64,000 bases of DNA, from positions 54,784 through 118,783 of the forward strand of contig JAUNJY010000007.1 of NCBI GenBank assembly GCA_030535455.1, given 5' to 3'. Shown piece by piece: positions 1 to 48,240 of this stretch; within the stretch, counting starts at the first letter, position 1; each line of letters begins with the position of its first letter. The notes under the pieces are model-generated. The model was not told where the DNA came from. It made no database searches and saw nothing but the letters and a program-made list of their open reading frames with translations. Position numbers and translations under genes: made by a program. The stretch comes from a bacterium. GTDB lineage: Bacteria; Bacillota; Clostridia; Lachnospirales; Lachnospiraceae.

Positions 1-120
1 CCTGATAGGAGAATGTCGCTAGCGCGAGTAGGTTCGGCGCGTGCAAAGTGCCTTCTCCCGGGAGATTGAGGGTAAGGGGAGCCACGAATGTCGAAGACAC
101 TTTGTTCTGGATAGAAAACT
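1..120 (+). repeat. Dispersed structured element, copy A (cut by window start)
   Basis: Only the 3' part of the element is visible. It holds the shared core with GAATGTCGC at about 11-19 and GGTTCGGCGCG at about 31-41, then a hairpin in which AAAGTG (44-49) pairs with CACTTT (98-103), followed by GTTCTGG. The same end, CACTTTGTTCT, closes copy E near 44.37 kb. The 5' hairpins lie outside the window. No coding frame is convincing here. Confidence 0.6.
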
Positions 121-6923: not shown

Positions 6924-6996
6924 AAAATTGTAAAAAATAGTACATTATATAGAGTTATTGCAAACGCAGTAAATCACATTTTAGGAGGAAACAACA

Positions 6997-7239
6997 ATGG
7001 CAGTAAAAATCAGATTAAAACGTATGGGACAAAAGAAAGCACCTTTCTATAGAATTATCGTAGCAGATTCAAGATCTCCAAGAGATGGTAAATTCATCGA
7101 TCAAATCGGTACTTACAACCCAACAGTTGAACCAAGTGCTTTCAACGTAGATGAAGAAAAAGCAAAAACTTGGTTAGCTAACGGAGCTCAACCTACTGAA
7201 ACAGTAGCTAAATTATTCAAAAACGCTGGTGTTCTTTAA
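6997..7239 (+). CDS. rpsP: 30S ribosomal protein S16, stand-alone copy
   Basis: An 80-residue S16 (bS16), the small-subunit assembly protein. [30 protein letters not shown] and IGTYNP are diagnostic. AGGAGG precedes the ATG. It differs from the second S16 at 26.2 kb at nine of 80 positions (residues 5, 12, 25, 41, 58, 68, 71, 74 and 79), so both are full length and look functional. This copy is outside the usual ylxM-ffh operon, with its own promoter and a strong terminator, so it is a single-gene unit. Confidence 0.96.
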
Positions 7240-7264
7240 TTCATAGGAACAACATAATGATAAA

Positions 7265-7727: not shown

Positions 7728-7857
7728 CATTGATAGAGAATTTGTCGTCGAGAACTTTCCTATCAATGAAAAAGCATCCGAAAAAGCGGGTGTAAGATGC
7801 ACACTCACTGGAAAGGCAGATTTCGCTTGTTAACGTTACCAAGTTCGACGCAAAAAA
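7728..7857 (+). repeat. Dispersed structured element, copy B
   Basis: Hairpin 1 pairs CATTGATAG (7728-7736) with CTATCAATG (7760-7768). Hairpin 2 pairs GCATCC with GGGTGT around GAAAAAGC. The core GATGCACACTCACTGG follows, and AAGTTCGACGC closes it. It begins directly after a terminator T-run and ends about 25 bases before the next gene. Confidence 0.75.
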
Positions 7858-23850: not shown

Positions 23851-24002
23851 TATGGATAGAAAGCGTCTCTTGGAGCCGCCTTCCATTCATAAAAAAGGCC
23901 CTAAAAAGACAGTGCGTACGATGCGCACTCACCGGAAATGAAAGTGTCGCAGTCGCGACCAGGTTCGGTACAAAAAAAGTGTGTGTGGAGCACACTTTTT
24001 TT
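23851..24002 (+). repeat. Dispersed structured element, copy C
   Basis: Hairpin 1 pairs ATGGATAG with a diverged CTTCCATTCAT. The core CGATGCGCACTCACCGG follows, with an inner perfect hairpin GTCGC-AGTC-GCGAC, then AGGTTCGGTAC. Hairpin 4 is a perfect 12-base stem (23972-23983 with 23991-24002) ending in seven T, so the element itself can end as a terminator. It lies in a 721-base gene-less stretch (23585-24305) that otherwise shows only copy D and a promoter. Confidence 0.75.
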
Positions 24003-24007
24003 AATAC

Positions 24008-24130
24008 ATAGGAGACTTCTCTTCGAGAAGTCTCCTATTCTTGAACAAAGCACCCTGAAAAGCGGGGGCAAGATGCGCAATCACTCGAGAGAAAGATGTC
24101 GCAATCGTAACCCGGTTCGGCGCGAGTAAA
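24008..24130 (+). repeat. Dispersed structured element, copy D
   Basis: Hairpin 1 is a perfect 14-base stem (24008-24021 with 24025-24038) around TTC. Hairpin 2 pairs GCACCC with GGGGGC around TGAAAAGC. The core GATGCGCAATCACTCG and GGTTCGGCGCG follow. It begins right after the hairpin-4 T-run of copy C, so two elements stand in tandem. Confidence 0.78.
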
Positions 24131-26092: not shown

Positions 26093-26204
26093 TATGTAAT
26101 TGTTTTTTGTATGGAAATGAGTCAGTTCATATTCAGCAAGTTACAATATAGATTTATTACATTTAATTGTAATAGCAGTTTAGACTTAAGGAGGTGAAAA
26201 TAAC

Positions 26205-26447
26205 ATGGCAGTAAAAATGAGATTAAAAAGAATGGGTTCCAAAAAAGCTCCTTTCTATAGAATTATCGTAGCTGATGCTAGATCTCCAAGAGATGGTAAG
26301 TTCATCGACCAAATCGGTACTTATGATCCAACAGTTGAGCCAAGTGCTTTCAACGTTGATGAAGAAAAAGCAAAACAATGGTTAGCTAACGGTGCACAAC
26401 CAACTGATACAGTAAACAAATTATTAAAAAATGCTGGTATCCTTTAA
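26205..26447 (+). CDS. rpsP: 30S ribosomal protein S16, operon copy
   Basis: An 80-residue S16 in the conserved place after ffh. [19 protein letters not shown] and [13 protein letters not shown] are diagnostic. AGGAGG precedes the start. It is 71/80 identical by eye to the copy at 7.0 kb. S16 is needed for 30S assembly; having two intact copies is unusual. Confidence 0.97.
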
Positions 26448-26540
26448 TTTGGAACGTATGACTAGTTTCGATTATAACGCAGACTCAATTTTGTTTACTC
26501 CCTATCGTTGCTTAAAATATTAAGTCCGAGGTGAGAGATA

Positions 26541-27002: not shown

Positions 27003-27041
27003 GCGCTTCACTGTATTGGGGGGAGAAAGAAAAAAGATATA

Positions 27042-27436
27042 GAGTTTACGGCTATCGCACGAACGTGCGATAAGCGTAAACCTGAAGGTAGTGGCGAACG
27101 CAGAAAAGACGAGCAAGATGGCGAGTTTACGGCTATCGCGAAGGACGTGCGATAAGCGTAAACCTGAAGGTAGTGGCGAACGCGGAAAAGACGAGCAAGA
27201 TGGCGAGTTTACGGCTATCGCGAGGGACGTGCGATAAGCGTAAACCTGAAGGTAGTGGCGAACGCGGAAAAGACGAGCAAGATGGTGAGTTTACGGCTAT
27301 CGCCAAGGGCATGCGATAAGCGTAAACCTGAAGGCTGTGGTGAACGTGAAAAGACGAGCAAGTTGGTGAGTTTACGGCTATCGCACGAACGTGCGATAAG
27401 CGTAAACCTGAAGGTAGTGGCGAACGCAGAAAAGAC
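27042..27436. repeat. Five tandem 81/82-bp hairpin repeats
   Basis: Units begin at 27042, 27123, 27205, 27287 and 27368. Each starts with a hairpin: GTTTACG pairs with CGTAAAC, a GCT/AAG internal loop follows, then ATCGC pairs with GCGAT. Only the 8-9-base loop varies (ACGAACGT in units 1 and 5; others differ). A conserved ~43-base linker beginning CTGAAGGTAGTGGCGAACGC follows. Periods not divisible by three and stop-broken frames exclude a repeated protein. Function is unknown. Confidence 0.85.
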
Positions 27437-43241: not shown

Positions 43242-44138
43242 ATGAAAATAAATCGATTGTTTGAGATTGTCTATTTGCTGCTGGACCATAAGACGCTGAC
43301 AGCAAAAGAACTGGCAGAGCGATTTGAGGTATCCACACGAACGATTTATCGTGATATCGAAAATCTATCCATAGCAGGAATTCCTATTTATATGAGCAAA
43401 GGAAAAGGCGGAGGCATATCCTTATTGCCTGATTTTATCTTTAATAAGTCCGTCCTTTCCGAAGAGGAGAAGTCAGGAATATTGGCATCTTTACAGGCAG
43501 TAAGTTCTGTCCGCCCTGAAGAGGCGGCCCCTGCACTGGCTAAATTAAGTACCATGTTGGGCGGCCACGACACAGACTGGATTGAGGTTGATTTTTCAAG
43601 CTGGGCCAACCTAGACTACGAAAATACCGTGTTTAGCCAGTTAAAAGAGGCTATCCTTCGAAAACAGATTGTATCCTTCGATTATGTAAGTGGGAAAAAA
43701 GAGTCAACTACACGGACTGTGCTGCCATTAAAATTATGTTTTAAGGGACAGGCTTGGTATTTATACGCATTTTGCAAGACAAGAAAAGAAGAACGTTTCT
43801 TTAAGCTGAGGCGGCTTCATCATCTATTTGTGACGGAAACTTCCTTTGAGTATCCTACACCTAAAAAGGTCCTGTCCAACACGAAAATTCCTGCAGAGCA
43901 TATGGTTTCTATTCGACTAAAAGTATCTAAAGAAATGGCATTTCGAGTATATGACGAGGTGGAACAGTTTGAGGTGGACAAGGAAGGAAACTTCCTTTGT
44001 ACGGTGTTGATGCCAAATGGACGATGGATAAGTGATTACATATGCTCTCTGGGAGAATACTGTGAAGTGATTGAGCCTGCCTGGCTCCGCAGCCAGATCA
44101 AAGAACAGTTAGAGCGTACATTAAAAAGATATGAATAG
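43242..44138 (+). CDS. YafY-type HTH/WYL-domain transcriptional regulator
   Basis: A 298-residue regulator: DeoR-type winged helix (LTAKELAERFEVSTRTIYRDI), then a WYL domain from about residue 130 with FKGQAWYLYAFCKTRKEERF and a C-terminal WCX-like region. WYL domains sense nucleic-acid or other ligands. It is paired with the unknown gene just upstream. Confidence 0.9.
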   Translation: MKINRLFEIVYLLLDHKTLTAKELAERFEVSTRTIYRDIENLSIAGIPIYMSKGKGGGISLLPDFIFNKSVLSEEEKSGILASLQAVSSVRPEEAAPALAKLSTMLGGHDTDWIEVDFSSWANLDYENTVFSQLKEAILRKQIVSFDYVSGKKESTTRTVLPLKLCFKGQAWYLYAFCKTRKEERFFKLRRLHHLFVTETSFEYPTPKKVLSNTKIPAEHMVSIRLKVSKEMAFRVYDEVEQFEVDKEGNFLCTVLMPNGRWISDYICSLGEYCEVIEPAWLRSQIKEQLERTLKRYE

Positions 44139-44189
44139 GATGAGAGGCGCGTTGGAGTGAATGCAAGATTTCATTTGTCTACAGTCTGA

Positions 44190-44220
44190 GAAGGGAGAAT
44201 AATCCCCTTCTCTTTTTTTT
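44190..44220 (+). terminator. Intrinsic terminator before repeat copy E
   Basis: AGAAGGGGA-type arm (AGAAGGGAGAATAATCCCCTTCTC) pairs AGAAGGG with CCCTTCT, followed by eight T. Confidence 0.75.
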
Positions 44221-44221
44221 A

Positions 44222-44373
44222 TTGATAGGAAACTTCTCTTCGCGCAGCTTCCTATCAATAAAAAAAGGCTTTCTAAAAACCAGAAAGCCAAGATGCGCAC
44301 TTACGCAGAAGGAGTTTATCACTTCGTGATCGCGTTCGGCGCGGAGTGTTTTGCAAGCAAAACACTTTGTTCT
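44222..44373 (+). repeat. Dispersed structured element, copy E (best four-hairpin copy)
   Basis: Hairpin 1: TTGATAGGAA (44222-44231) pairs exactly with TTCCTATCAA (44249-44258). Hairpin 2: GGCTTTCT (44267-44274) pairs exactly with AGAAAGCC (44282-44289), a sequence unlike the GCACCC/GGGTGC of other copies. Hairpin 3: GCGC...GCGC closes ATCAC-TTC-GTGAT. Hairpin 4: AGTGTTTTGC (44345-44354) pairs exactly with GCAAAACACT (44357-44366). It starts one base after a terminator T-run. Confidence 0.85.
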
Positions 44374-48067: not shown

Positions 48068-48093
48068 GAGCGCATAGAAGCGCTCTTTTTTTT
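48068..48093 (+). terminator. Intrinsic terminator before repeat copy F
   Basis: GAGCGC-ATAGAA-GCGCTC followed by eight T. Confidence 0.9.
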
Positions 48094-48240
48094 GAATAGG
48101 AAACTTTTCTTCGAGAAGCCTCCTATTCTTGAACAAAGCACCATGAAAAGCGGGTGCAAGATGCGCACTCACTCGAAAGGAGAATGTCGCTGTCGCAACC
48201 GAGTTCGGCACGGAGTGGTTTGTAAGCAAAACACTTTTTT
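48094..48240 (+). repeat. Dispersed structured element, copy F
   Basis: Hairpin 1 pairs GAATAGGA (48094-48101) with TCCTATTC (48121-48128), extended by AACTTTTCTTCGAGAAG. Hairpin 2 pairs GCACC with GGTGC. The core GATGCGCACTCACTCG and CGAGTTCGGCACG follow. Hairpin 4 pairs AGTG..TTTG with CAAA..CACT. It begins at the last T of a terminator. The remaining gene-less DNA to 48321 shows nothing else. Confidence 0.82.

What the first reader, a model, noticed from the sequence alone, without database searches (positions are those of the whole stretch)
44222..44373. Dispersed four-hairpin intergenic element with pairing conserved across changed sequence
Seen directly: six recognisable copies (1-120, 7728-7857, 23851-24002, 24008-24130, 44222-44373, 48094-48240) and several decayed pieces share a core around GATGCGCACTCACTCG and GTTCGGCGCG. 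Up to four consecutive hairpins occur in the same order. Pairing is kept when sequence changes: hairpin 2 is GCACCC/GGGTGC-like in B, D and F but GGCTTTCT/AGAAAGCC in E; the inner stem of hairpin 3 is GTCGC/GCGAC in C but ATCAC/GTGAT in E. Inference: selection acts on an RNA or DNA fold, so this may be an undescribed structured RNA, a small non-autonomous mobile element, or both. I know of no named family that matches, but I cannot search.
Basis: partly seen in the sequence, partly recalled or inferred. Interest (0 to 1): 0.85.

Follow-up and report, generated by a model that had tools for sequence, protein, structure and literature searches.

The report
Small mobile repeats behind transcription terminators
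The window holds copies of a small, strongly folded, gene-less DNA element that occurs over a hundred times in this genome and inserts just behind the stop signals of transcription; it looks like an unnamed family of mobile repeats whose moving enzyme is still unknown.

Summary
Six copies lie at the stated places, all on the + strand, and no Rfam family matches. The own genome gives 148 model matches (a lower bound), and 65 of 299 sampled genomes of its family carry the element; named relatives are mostly Lachnospiraceae. One copy from each of 32 genomes shows strong compensatory pairing: 49 double-change cells against 8.8 in shuffles.

New here: it behaves as a mobile element with a specific target. 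Copies start in the T-tract of an intrinsic terminator of the upstream gene (T-tract 32 of 32; hairpin before it 27 of 32, 9.1 expected). Two closely related genomes have 17 matches against 1. At two clean sites the relative has the same terminator without the element, which places insertion at TTTTTA^TG without target duplication. Orientation follows replication (119 of 121 hits agree within contigs).

Target and strand equal those of group IIC introns, but no ribozyme or gene is present. Neither reverse transcriptase nor Y1 transposase is found in both copy-rich genomes, so the mover is unknown. The core is probably read as folded single-stranded DNA; an RNA role is neither shown nor excluded. 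This is a new family of a known broad kind with an unusual target.

The parts
44188..44220 (+). Intrinsic terminator of the upstream gene 43242-44138: stem 44188-44195 / 44204-44212 and T-tract; the insertion target of copy E
   Evidence: Sequence; folds as a hairpin; the orthologous terminator in G001 carries no recognisable element
44213..44267 (+). Copy E, hairpin 1: T-tract and TTGATAGGA arm paired with TCCTATCAA and A-tract
   Evidence: Fold; arms match within copies far better than between copies
44267..44289 (+). Copy E, hairpin 2 (GGCTTTCT/AGAAAGCC)
   Evidence: Fold; other type GCACC/GGTGC in B, D, F
44293..44344 (+). Copy E, conserved core: stem A 44294-44298, stem B 44303-44307 / 44331-44335, purine-rich bulge, stem C 44318-44322 / 44326-44330
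   Evidence: R2 59.2 bits, E 1.7e-11 (E is one of the 32 rows of R2); covariation
44345..44372 (+). Copy E, hairpin 4 (AGTGTTTTGC/GCAAAACACT) and T-rich tail TTTGTTC: terminator-like 3' end of the element
   Evidence: Fold; alignment of 30 copies
1..110 (+). Copy A, 3' part only (core remainder to about 42, then a long 3' hairpin module ending CACTTTGTTC); 5' part lies before the window
7729..7853 (+). Copy B (core 7797-7853), behind a terminator
   Evidence: R1 83 bits, R2 24.8 bits
23852..24002 (+). Copy C (core 23921-23973), first unit of a tandem pair
   Evidence: R1 91 bits, R2 42.1 bits
24004..24130 (+). Copy D (core 24073-24125), second unit of the tandem pair
   Evidence: R1 93 bits, R2 36.7 bits
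48067..48093 (+). Intrinsic terminator AGAGCGC..GCGCTCT and T-tract of the upstream methyltransferase-type gene; insertion target of copy F
   Evidence: Terminator also present in G001, followed there by other sequence
48092..48240 (+). Copy F (core 48161-48213, hairpin 4 behind it)
   Evidence: R1 108 bits, R2 53.0 bits
50642..50751 (+). Decayed copy
   Evidence: R1 22.5 bits, E 0.003; not found by R2 at E <= 0.5

Best explanation
A family of small non-autonomous mobile elements (about 100-190 bp, no gene) that insert into the T-tract tail of intrinsic transcription terminators, mostly on the strand that is the lagging-strand template. SHOWN: high copy number, presence or absence at conserved terminators, the target, the orientation, no target duplication at two clean sites, covariation of the core fold. 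INFERRED: movement goes through folded single-stranded DNA exposed at replication forks; the host terminator hairpin marks the target; the conserved core hairpin, with unpaired ACT/TCG and an AAGG-rich bulge, is bound by an unidentified trans-acting enzyme; the element's own 3' terminator-like hairpin is equivalent to the host terminator, so each insertion supplies a new target (tandem arrays).
For: 148 model matches in G000; 17 against 1 in close relatives; same terminators with and without element, insertion at TTTTTA^TG; nearly identical copies behind three different terminators; T-tract 32/32 and hairpin 27/32 against 9.1 expected; 37 of 37 copies follow a same-strand gene; 2 of 121 hits on the minority strand of their contig, and in G003 the strand flips at dnaA; covariation 0/500; G.T only 4 of 297 standard pairs in stems B and C against 47 of 585 in tRNAs, which fits DNA pairing.
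Against: No enzyme identified; no composite element with a gene between the ends seen in what was fetched; Y1 loci of G000 carry no core match. In G003 the strand excess over gene orientation is modest (2 of 48 sites disagree, P 0.013). 5 of 32 sites fail the hairpin test. Copy F does not fold well as DNA. Five of 13 compared G061/G062 sites have flanks too diverged to judge.
Confidence: 0.72

Rival explanations
1. A SINE-like retroelement: an element RNA ending at its own terminator is copied by a group IIC intron reverse transcriptase acting in trans and joined behind terminators, the normal target of IIC introns.
For: Same target and strand as class C introns (PMC8919778 and PMC4424553, passages); an intron with a IIC-like RT sits directly behind an element copy in G061; some 5'-shortened copies abut the host T-tract (L209, L223; L024).
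Against: G000, with 148 matches, has no RVT_1 match (draft, 93.6% complete); RVT_1 presence does not track the element (10 of 15 bearers, 11 of 22 non-bearers in the family, p 0.50); no group II features in the element; G.T pairs are rare in stems B and C.
Confidence: 0.13
2. No dedicated enzyme: lagging-strand synthesis stalls at terminator hairpins, the nascent A-tract end switches to the T-tract behind another element copy's hairpin 4, copies the element and switches back.
For: Both ends of the element are T-tracts behind hairpins; tandem arrays, recurrent internal deletions and mosaic copies, mirrored hairpin-1 arms; no common transposase found; fork-linked orientation.
Against: T-tracts are very short homologies for jumps to distant loci; conserved unpaired core bases suggest recognition by a specific factor; I know of no precedent (recalled).
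Confidence: 0.1
3. A functional structured RNA or regulatory 3' element that the host keeps and copies at transcript ends.
For: Strong core covariation, position at transcript ends, own terminator-like end.
Against: Copies absent at orthologous ends in close relatives; patchy occurrence (65 of 299); the host terminator lies upstream and should stop transcription into it; G.T pairs rare. No transcript data available here.
Confidence: 0.05

Closest known systems
Group IIC (class C) introns
   Same: Insert immediately after rho-independent terminators and on the lagging-strand template (PMC8919778 passages; PMC4424553 passages).
   Different: No group II ribozyme domains (no Rfam match), no RT gene, 100-190 bp instead of kilobases (size of introns recalled).
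IS200/IS605 elements and their gene-less derivatives (PATE, REP)
   Same: Hairpins near the ends, single-strand target on the lagging-strand template (PMC6006769, abstract start in a search listing), no target duplication (recalled).
   Different: G003 has many copies and no Y1_Tnp match; Y1 loci of G000 and G001 carry no core.
BOX, RUP and SPRITE of pneumococcus; MITEs in general
   Same: Small, folded, interspersed, modular, without genes; SPRITE is terminator-like and lies near 3' ends of genes (PMC3049150 passages).
   Different: Here the host's own terminator is the target; no terminal inverted repeats and no target duplication at the two clean sites.
Integron gene cassettes (attC)
   Same: By analogy only: a folded single-strand site at the 3' end of each unit, tandem addition, effect of the lagging-strand template (PMC5371416 passages).
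   Different: No cassette gene and no integrase identified; attC core boxes were not tested.

Membership tests
Any Rfam 15 family | Match at or above the family's gathering score | tested here: not met
   0 matches in the window; 31 sub-threshold matches at six loci, all below gathering
Conserved folded element (not a named family) | Compensatory changes beyond controls in copies from different genomes | tested here: met
   caveat: the loci were collected with a model that contains stems B and C
MITE | Terminal inverted repeats | tested here: not met
   By eye: ends are TCTTACAGG.. and ..GGATTCTTTTTT or ..TTTGTTC
MITE | Target site duplication | tested here: not met
   Two clean occupied/empty pairs, L189/L191 and L184/L196
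MITE | Autonomous parent transposon with the same ends | not tested
   No systematic search for paired ends was made
IS200/IS605-derived element | Y1 transposase in a copy-rich genome | tested here: inconclusive
   G000: 3 matches, 2 without stops; G003, complete, many copies: none. The enzyme could have been lost from G003
Group IIC intron | Insertion behind an intrinsic terminator | tested here: met
Group IIC intron | Insertion in the lagging-strand template | tested here: met
Group IIC intron | Group II ribozyme domains and RT gene | tested here: not met
   No Rfam group II match in the window or the six loci; elements are too short for an RT gene
Integron cassette / attC | attC core boxes and integron integrase | not tested
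   No search made
Structured RNA gene | Transcript | not testable with these tools
   No RNA-seq at hand

The most novel reading that the evidence does not exclude
Intrinsic transcription terminators act as a general attachment site: the element's own 3' terminator and any host terminator are equivalent folded single-strand sites at the replication fork, and a gene-less cassette spreads from one to the next, like an integron cassette without an integron, by an unknown trans-acting recombinase or by fork template switching with no dedicated enzyme at all.
Probability: 0.25. Interest if true: 0.87.

Novelty: new variant of a known kind. Interest (0 to 1): 0.67.

Why it matters
It is abundant (148 matches in one genome, 55 in a complete one) and widespread in Lachnospiraceae, yet it matches no Rfam family, and I saw no description of it in the listings of six literature searches of open-licence papers aimed at such repeats. 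It changes the 3' ends of transcription units. Its target and strand coincide with those of group IIC introns, so it allows a direct test of whether terminators at replication forks are a shared landing site for unrelated mobile DNA, and of whether a gene-less element can use another element's machinery.

Tried and rejected
Rejected: a known Rfam RNA. Weakened as a single common mover: Y1 transposase (no match in G003) and reverse transcriptase (no match in G000); neither tracks the element among 37 family genomes (RVT_1 10/15 against 11/22, p 0.50; Y1 12/15 against 13/22, p 0.29). Both could be missed in a draft or lost later. Rejected: that the matched arms of hairpin 1 are made at insertion. 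In the young G061 copies L173, L175, L176, L180 and L185 the 3' arm reads GATAAAAAG while the T-tracts differ; L190 does match one changed base. Carriage by phages, plasmids or viruses: none found, but phages and plasmids were searched only with copy E, and viral contigs only with an exact core pattern that copy E itself does not match.

The first same-copy/cross-copy test selected for pairing and was repeated without that selection for G000. and the G061 part caught unrelated hairpins and are not used. tRNA parsing failed and worked. The G.T shares for host terminators, hairpins 1 and 4 and the core (11.8, 2.3, 9.6, 4.0%) come from minimum-energy folds and are not used as evidence; hairpin 4 is not depleted. 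RNAalifold on the first alignment A2 found few of these pairs.

Rows dropped: one search used 32 of the 35 hits above 80 bits (3 on contig C71, mixed strands, left out) plus 5 window copies; 3 of these 37 lie inside an ORF of the crude caller. One search dropped one reverse-strand shadow and merged copies within 1 kb (55 hits to 48 sites). L020 was left out of A3. In A6 about six rows seem shifted in stem C and count as unpaired. The G000 and 'other' rows come from the pairing-selected set; the 32-genome row does not.

Full report
OBSERVATION. A covariance model from 24 copies (R1) scores B to F at 83-147 bits; copy A is cut by the window edge and its 5' part lies upstream in the contig. No Rfam family reaches its threshold in the window. 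The matter is larger than the window: copy E has 61 BLAST matches in its own genome, 32 of them at 90% identity or more if two matches under 25 bases are left out, and R1 gives 148 matches at E <= 0.01 with 150 candidates scored, so 148 is a lower bound.

DISTRIBUTION. The three other same-genus genomes have 50, 16 and 57 matches; 11 of 33 other genomes of the family and 0 of 24 genomes of other families of the order have any (E <= 0.01). A wider sample gives 65 of 299 family genomes (E <= 1e-4, stricter filters). Copy E has no match in 50,697 phage or 72,556 plasmid records, and the core pattern none in viral contigs.

ANATOMY. In order: (i) a host terminator and its T-tract; (ii) hairpin 1, with inner part like ATAGGAAA..TTTCCTAT and variable outer bases, whose 3' arm runs into an A-tract opposite the T-tract; (iii) hairpin 2 (GGCTTTCT/AGAAAGCC, GCACC/GGTGC or CGCTCCGC type); (iv) the core, TGCRC-ACTY-stem B-purine-rich bulge (AAAGGA-like)-stem C-stem B'-TCG-GYGCR; (v) hairpin 4 with a T-rich tail, itself terminator-like. 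The outer parts vary and can be missing: L112 has the core directly behind a terminator. A second element in five G062 loci, directly behind terminators and without hairpins 1 and 2, shares the core architecture; the core model R2 scores it at E 6.7e-8, 2e-5, 2.2e-4, 0.009 and 0.16, so kinship is clear for the first three and tentative for the rest.

COVARIATION. One copy from each of 32 genomes, aligned by sequence (A6): stems A, B and C pair in 93.3% of cells (shuffled 83.4), 11 of 15 pairs show double changes (4.6) in 49 cells (8.8), and 0 of 500 shuffles reach any of the five measures; structures slid by 1-3 columns score at most 0.100 against 0.333. RNAalifold finds stems B and C and most of stem A unprompted. 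Caveats: the loci were collected with a model containing stems B and C, and relatedness is not modelled. Stems B and C hold 4 G.T among 297 standard pairs, against 47 of 585 in 27 tRNAs from the fetched sequences. Double changes thus far exceed G.T intermediates, which fits a DNA-level fold or templated correction better than a slowly evolving RNA; it is not proof.

HAIRPIN 1. In G000 the outer arms match within a copy far better than between copies: 434 of 517 cells, permuted 313.7 (sd 8.7), 0 of 5000, in 47 copies chosen without regard to outer pairing. The match includes T-tract irregularities (L005, L026), and in L083 of another genome it runs 21 bases, into the host terminator stem. This looks like templated correction of a hairpin. 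It is not made at insertion: in young G061 copies the 3' arm stays the same while the T-tract differs.

TARGET. A T-tract precedes 32 of 32 copies (one per genome), and a hairpin of at most -6 kcal/mol ends within 3 bases of it in 27 of 32 (9.1 expected from shuffles); in the pairing-selected sets the figures are 29 of 36 in G000 (6.7) and 50 of 78 elsewhere (19.1); control stretches give 2 of 31 (1.2). The terminators differ in sequence and so are host parts. All 37 copies examined in G000 follow a same-strand gene.

PRESENCE AND ABSENCE. G001 of the same genus is syntenic with the window; between the flanks of E and F it has 68 and 116 bases against 258 and 284, with the terminators recognisable and no R1 match. 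At the F site it has a short TATAGGA..TATCCTA palindrome, perhaps a remnant. The sharper pair is G061/G062, 86-89% identical over 5.6 kb: 17 R1 matches against 1, the one being shared (L177/L174). Flanks of the other 16 G061 sites were searched in G062. Thirteen have a counterpart: two show the conserved terminator with no element and place insertion at TTTTTA^TG; five have the second element there (behind a similar terminator at four, a different one at L186/L194); five lack the element in diverged flanks; one has a decayed copy. Three have no counterpart. L173, L175 and L176 are nearly identical copies behind three different terminators. Tandem units (C/D in the window; three in G003) and L190, behind another hairpin 4, show that the element's own 3' end can serve as target.

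STRAND. In the G000 stretches 255 genes are co-oriented with the elements and 48 opposite (15.8%). On the 36 G000 contigs with more than one hit, 2 of 121 hits are on the minority strand. In G003 (one contig) the strand flips between 3.40 and 3.66 Mb, around dnaA at 3,496,685, and near 1.13 Mb; with a terminus assumed opposite dnaA 2 of 48 sites disagree (P 0.013 against 15.8%), one of them 77 kb from that point. The element's sense strand is thus mostly in the lagging-strand template.

WHAT MOVES IT. Class C group II introns have the same two habits (PMC8919778, passages; PMC4424553, passages). One group II intron sits directly behind an element copy in G061 (group-II-D1D4-3, 140 bits), and its partial RT matches GsI-IIC RT best (E 2.5e-78). 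But the element has no group II features, G000 has no RVT_1 match, G003 has no Y1 match, and neither gene tracks the element. So I commit to 'mobile element of lagging-template terminators, probably moving as folded single-strand DNA, enzyme unknown', with trans-mobilisation by a IIC RT as first rival and enzyme-free fork template switching as the boldest. Shortened copies abutting T-tracts (L209, L223, L024) and repeated internal deletions (L206, L216, L217, L219) fit either copying model.

NOVELTY. Small interspersed gene-less repeats are a known kind (MITE, BOX, RUP, SPRITE, REP). This family matches no Rfam family, lacks terminal inverted repeats and target duplication, and combines a terminator target, fork-linked orientation and cassette-like 3' ends. 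The literature searches cover open-licence papers only and I saw listings, plus passages of PMC2267715, PMC3049150 and PMC10969869. Robart 2007 and Toor 2006 were not held; I know them only through other papers' passages.

Noticed in passing
window 44139-44189; also L008, L012, L013, L014, L022, L162, L163, L170, L208: A second repeat, ending ATTTGTCTACAGTCTGA, lies directly upstream of terminator stems, with or without the element behind them (10 of 13 loose matches look real). G001 lacks this stretch at the E site.
   Followed up: partly
window 6988-7241 and 26196-26449: Two stretches 19 kb apart are 85% identical over 254 bases; the first encodes a ribosomal protein S16 match, the second was not searched.
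   Followed up: no
window 27022-27436: About five tandem repeats with an 80-82 base period, inside or near open frames.
   Followed up: no
L075 7650-7991 (minus strand): A copy sits directly behind the terminator of a T-box leader, so transcription into a gene beyond would have to pass through the element.
   Followed up: no
L180-L190 (G061): Several G061 copies carry extra repeat modules inside hairpin 2 or the core, as if other small repeats had inserted into the element.
   Followed up: no
L053, L076, L094, L095, L107, L114: In six named records the element lies behind the same conserved gene of about 1.6 kb; gene not identified, so shared ancestry and repeated targeting are not separated.
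   Followed up: no
L173 1-1300: Group II intron with a IIC-like RT inserted right behind the tail of an element copy.
   Followed up: partly
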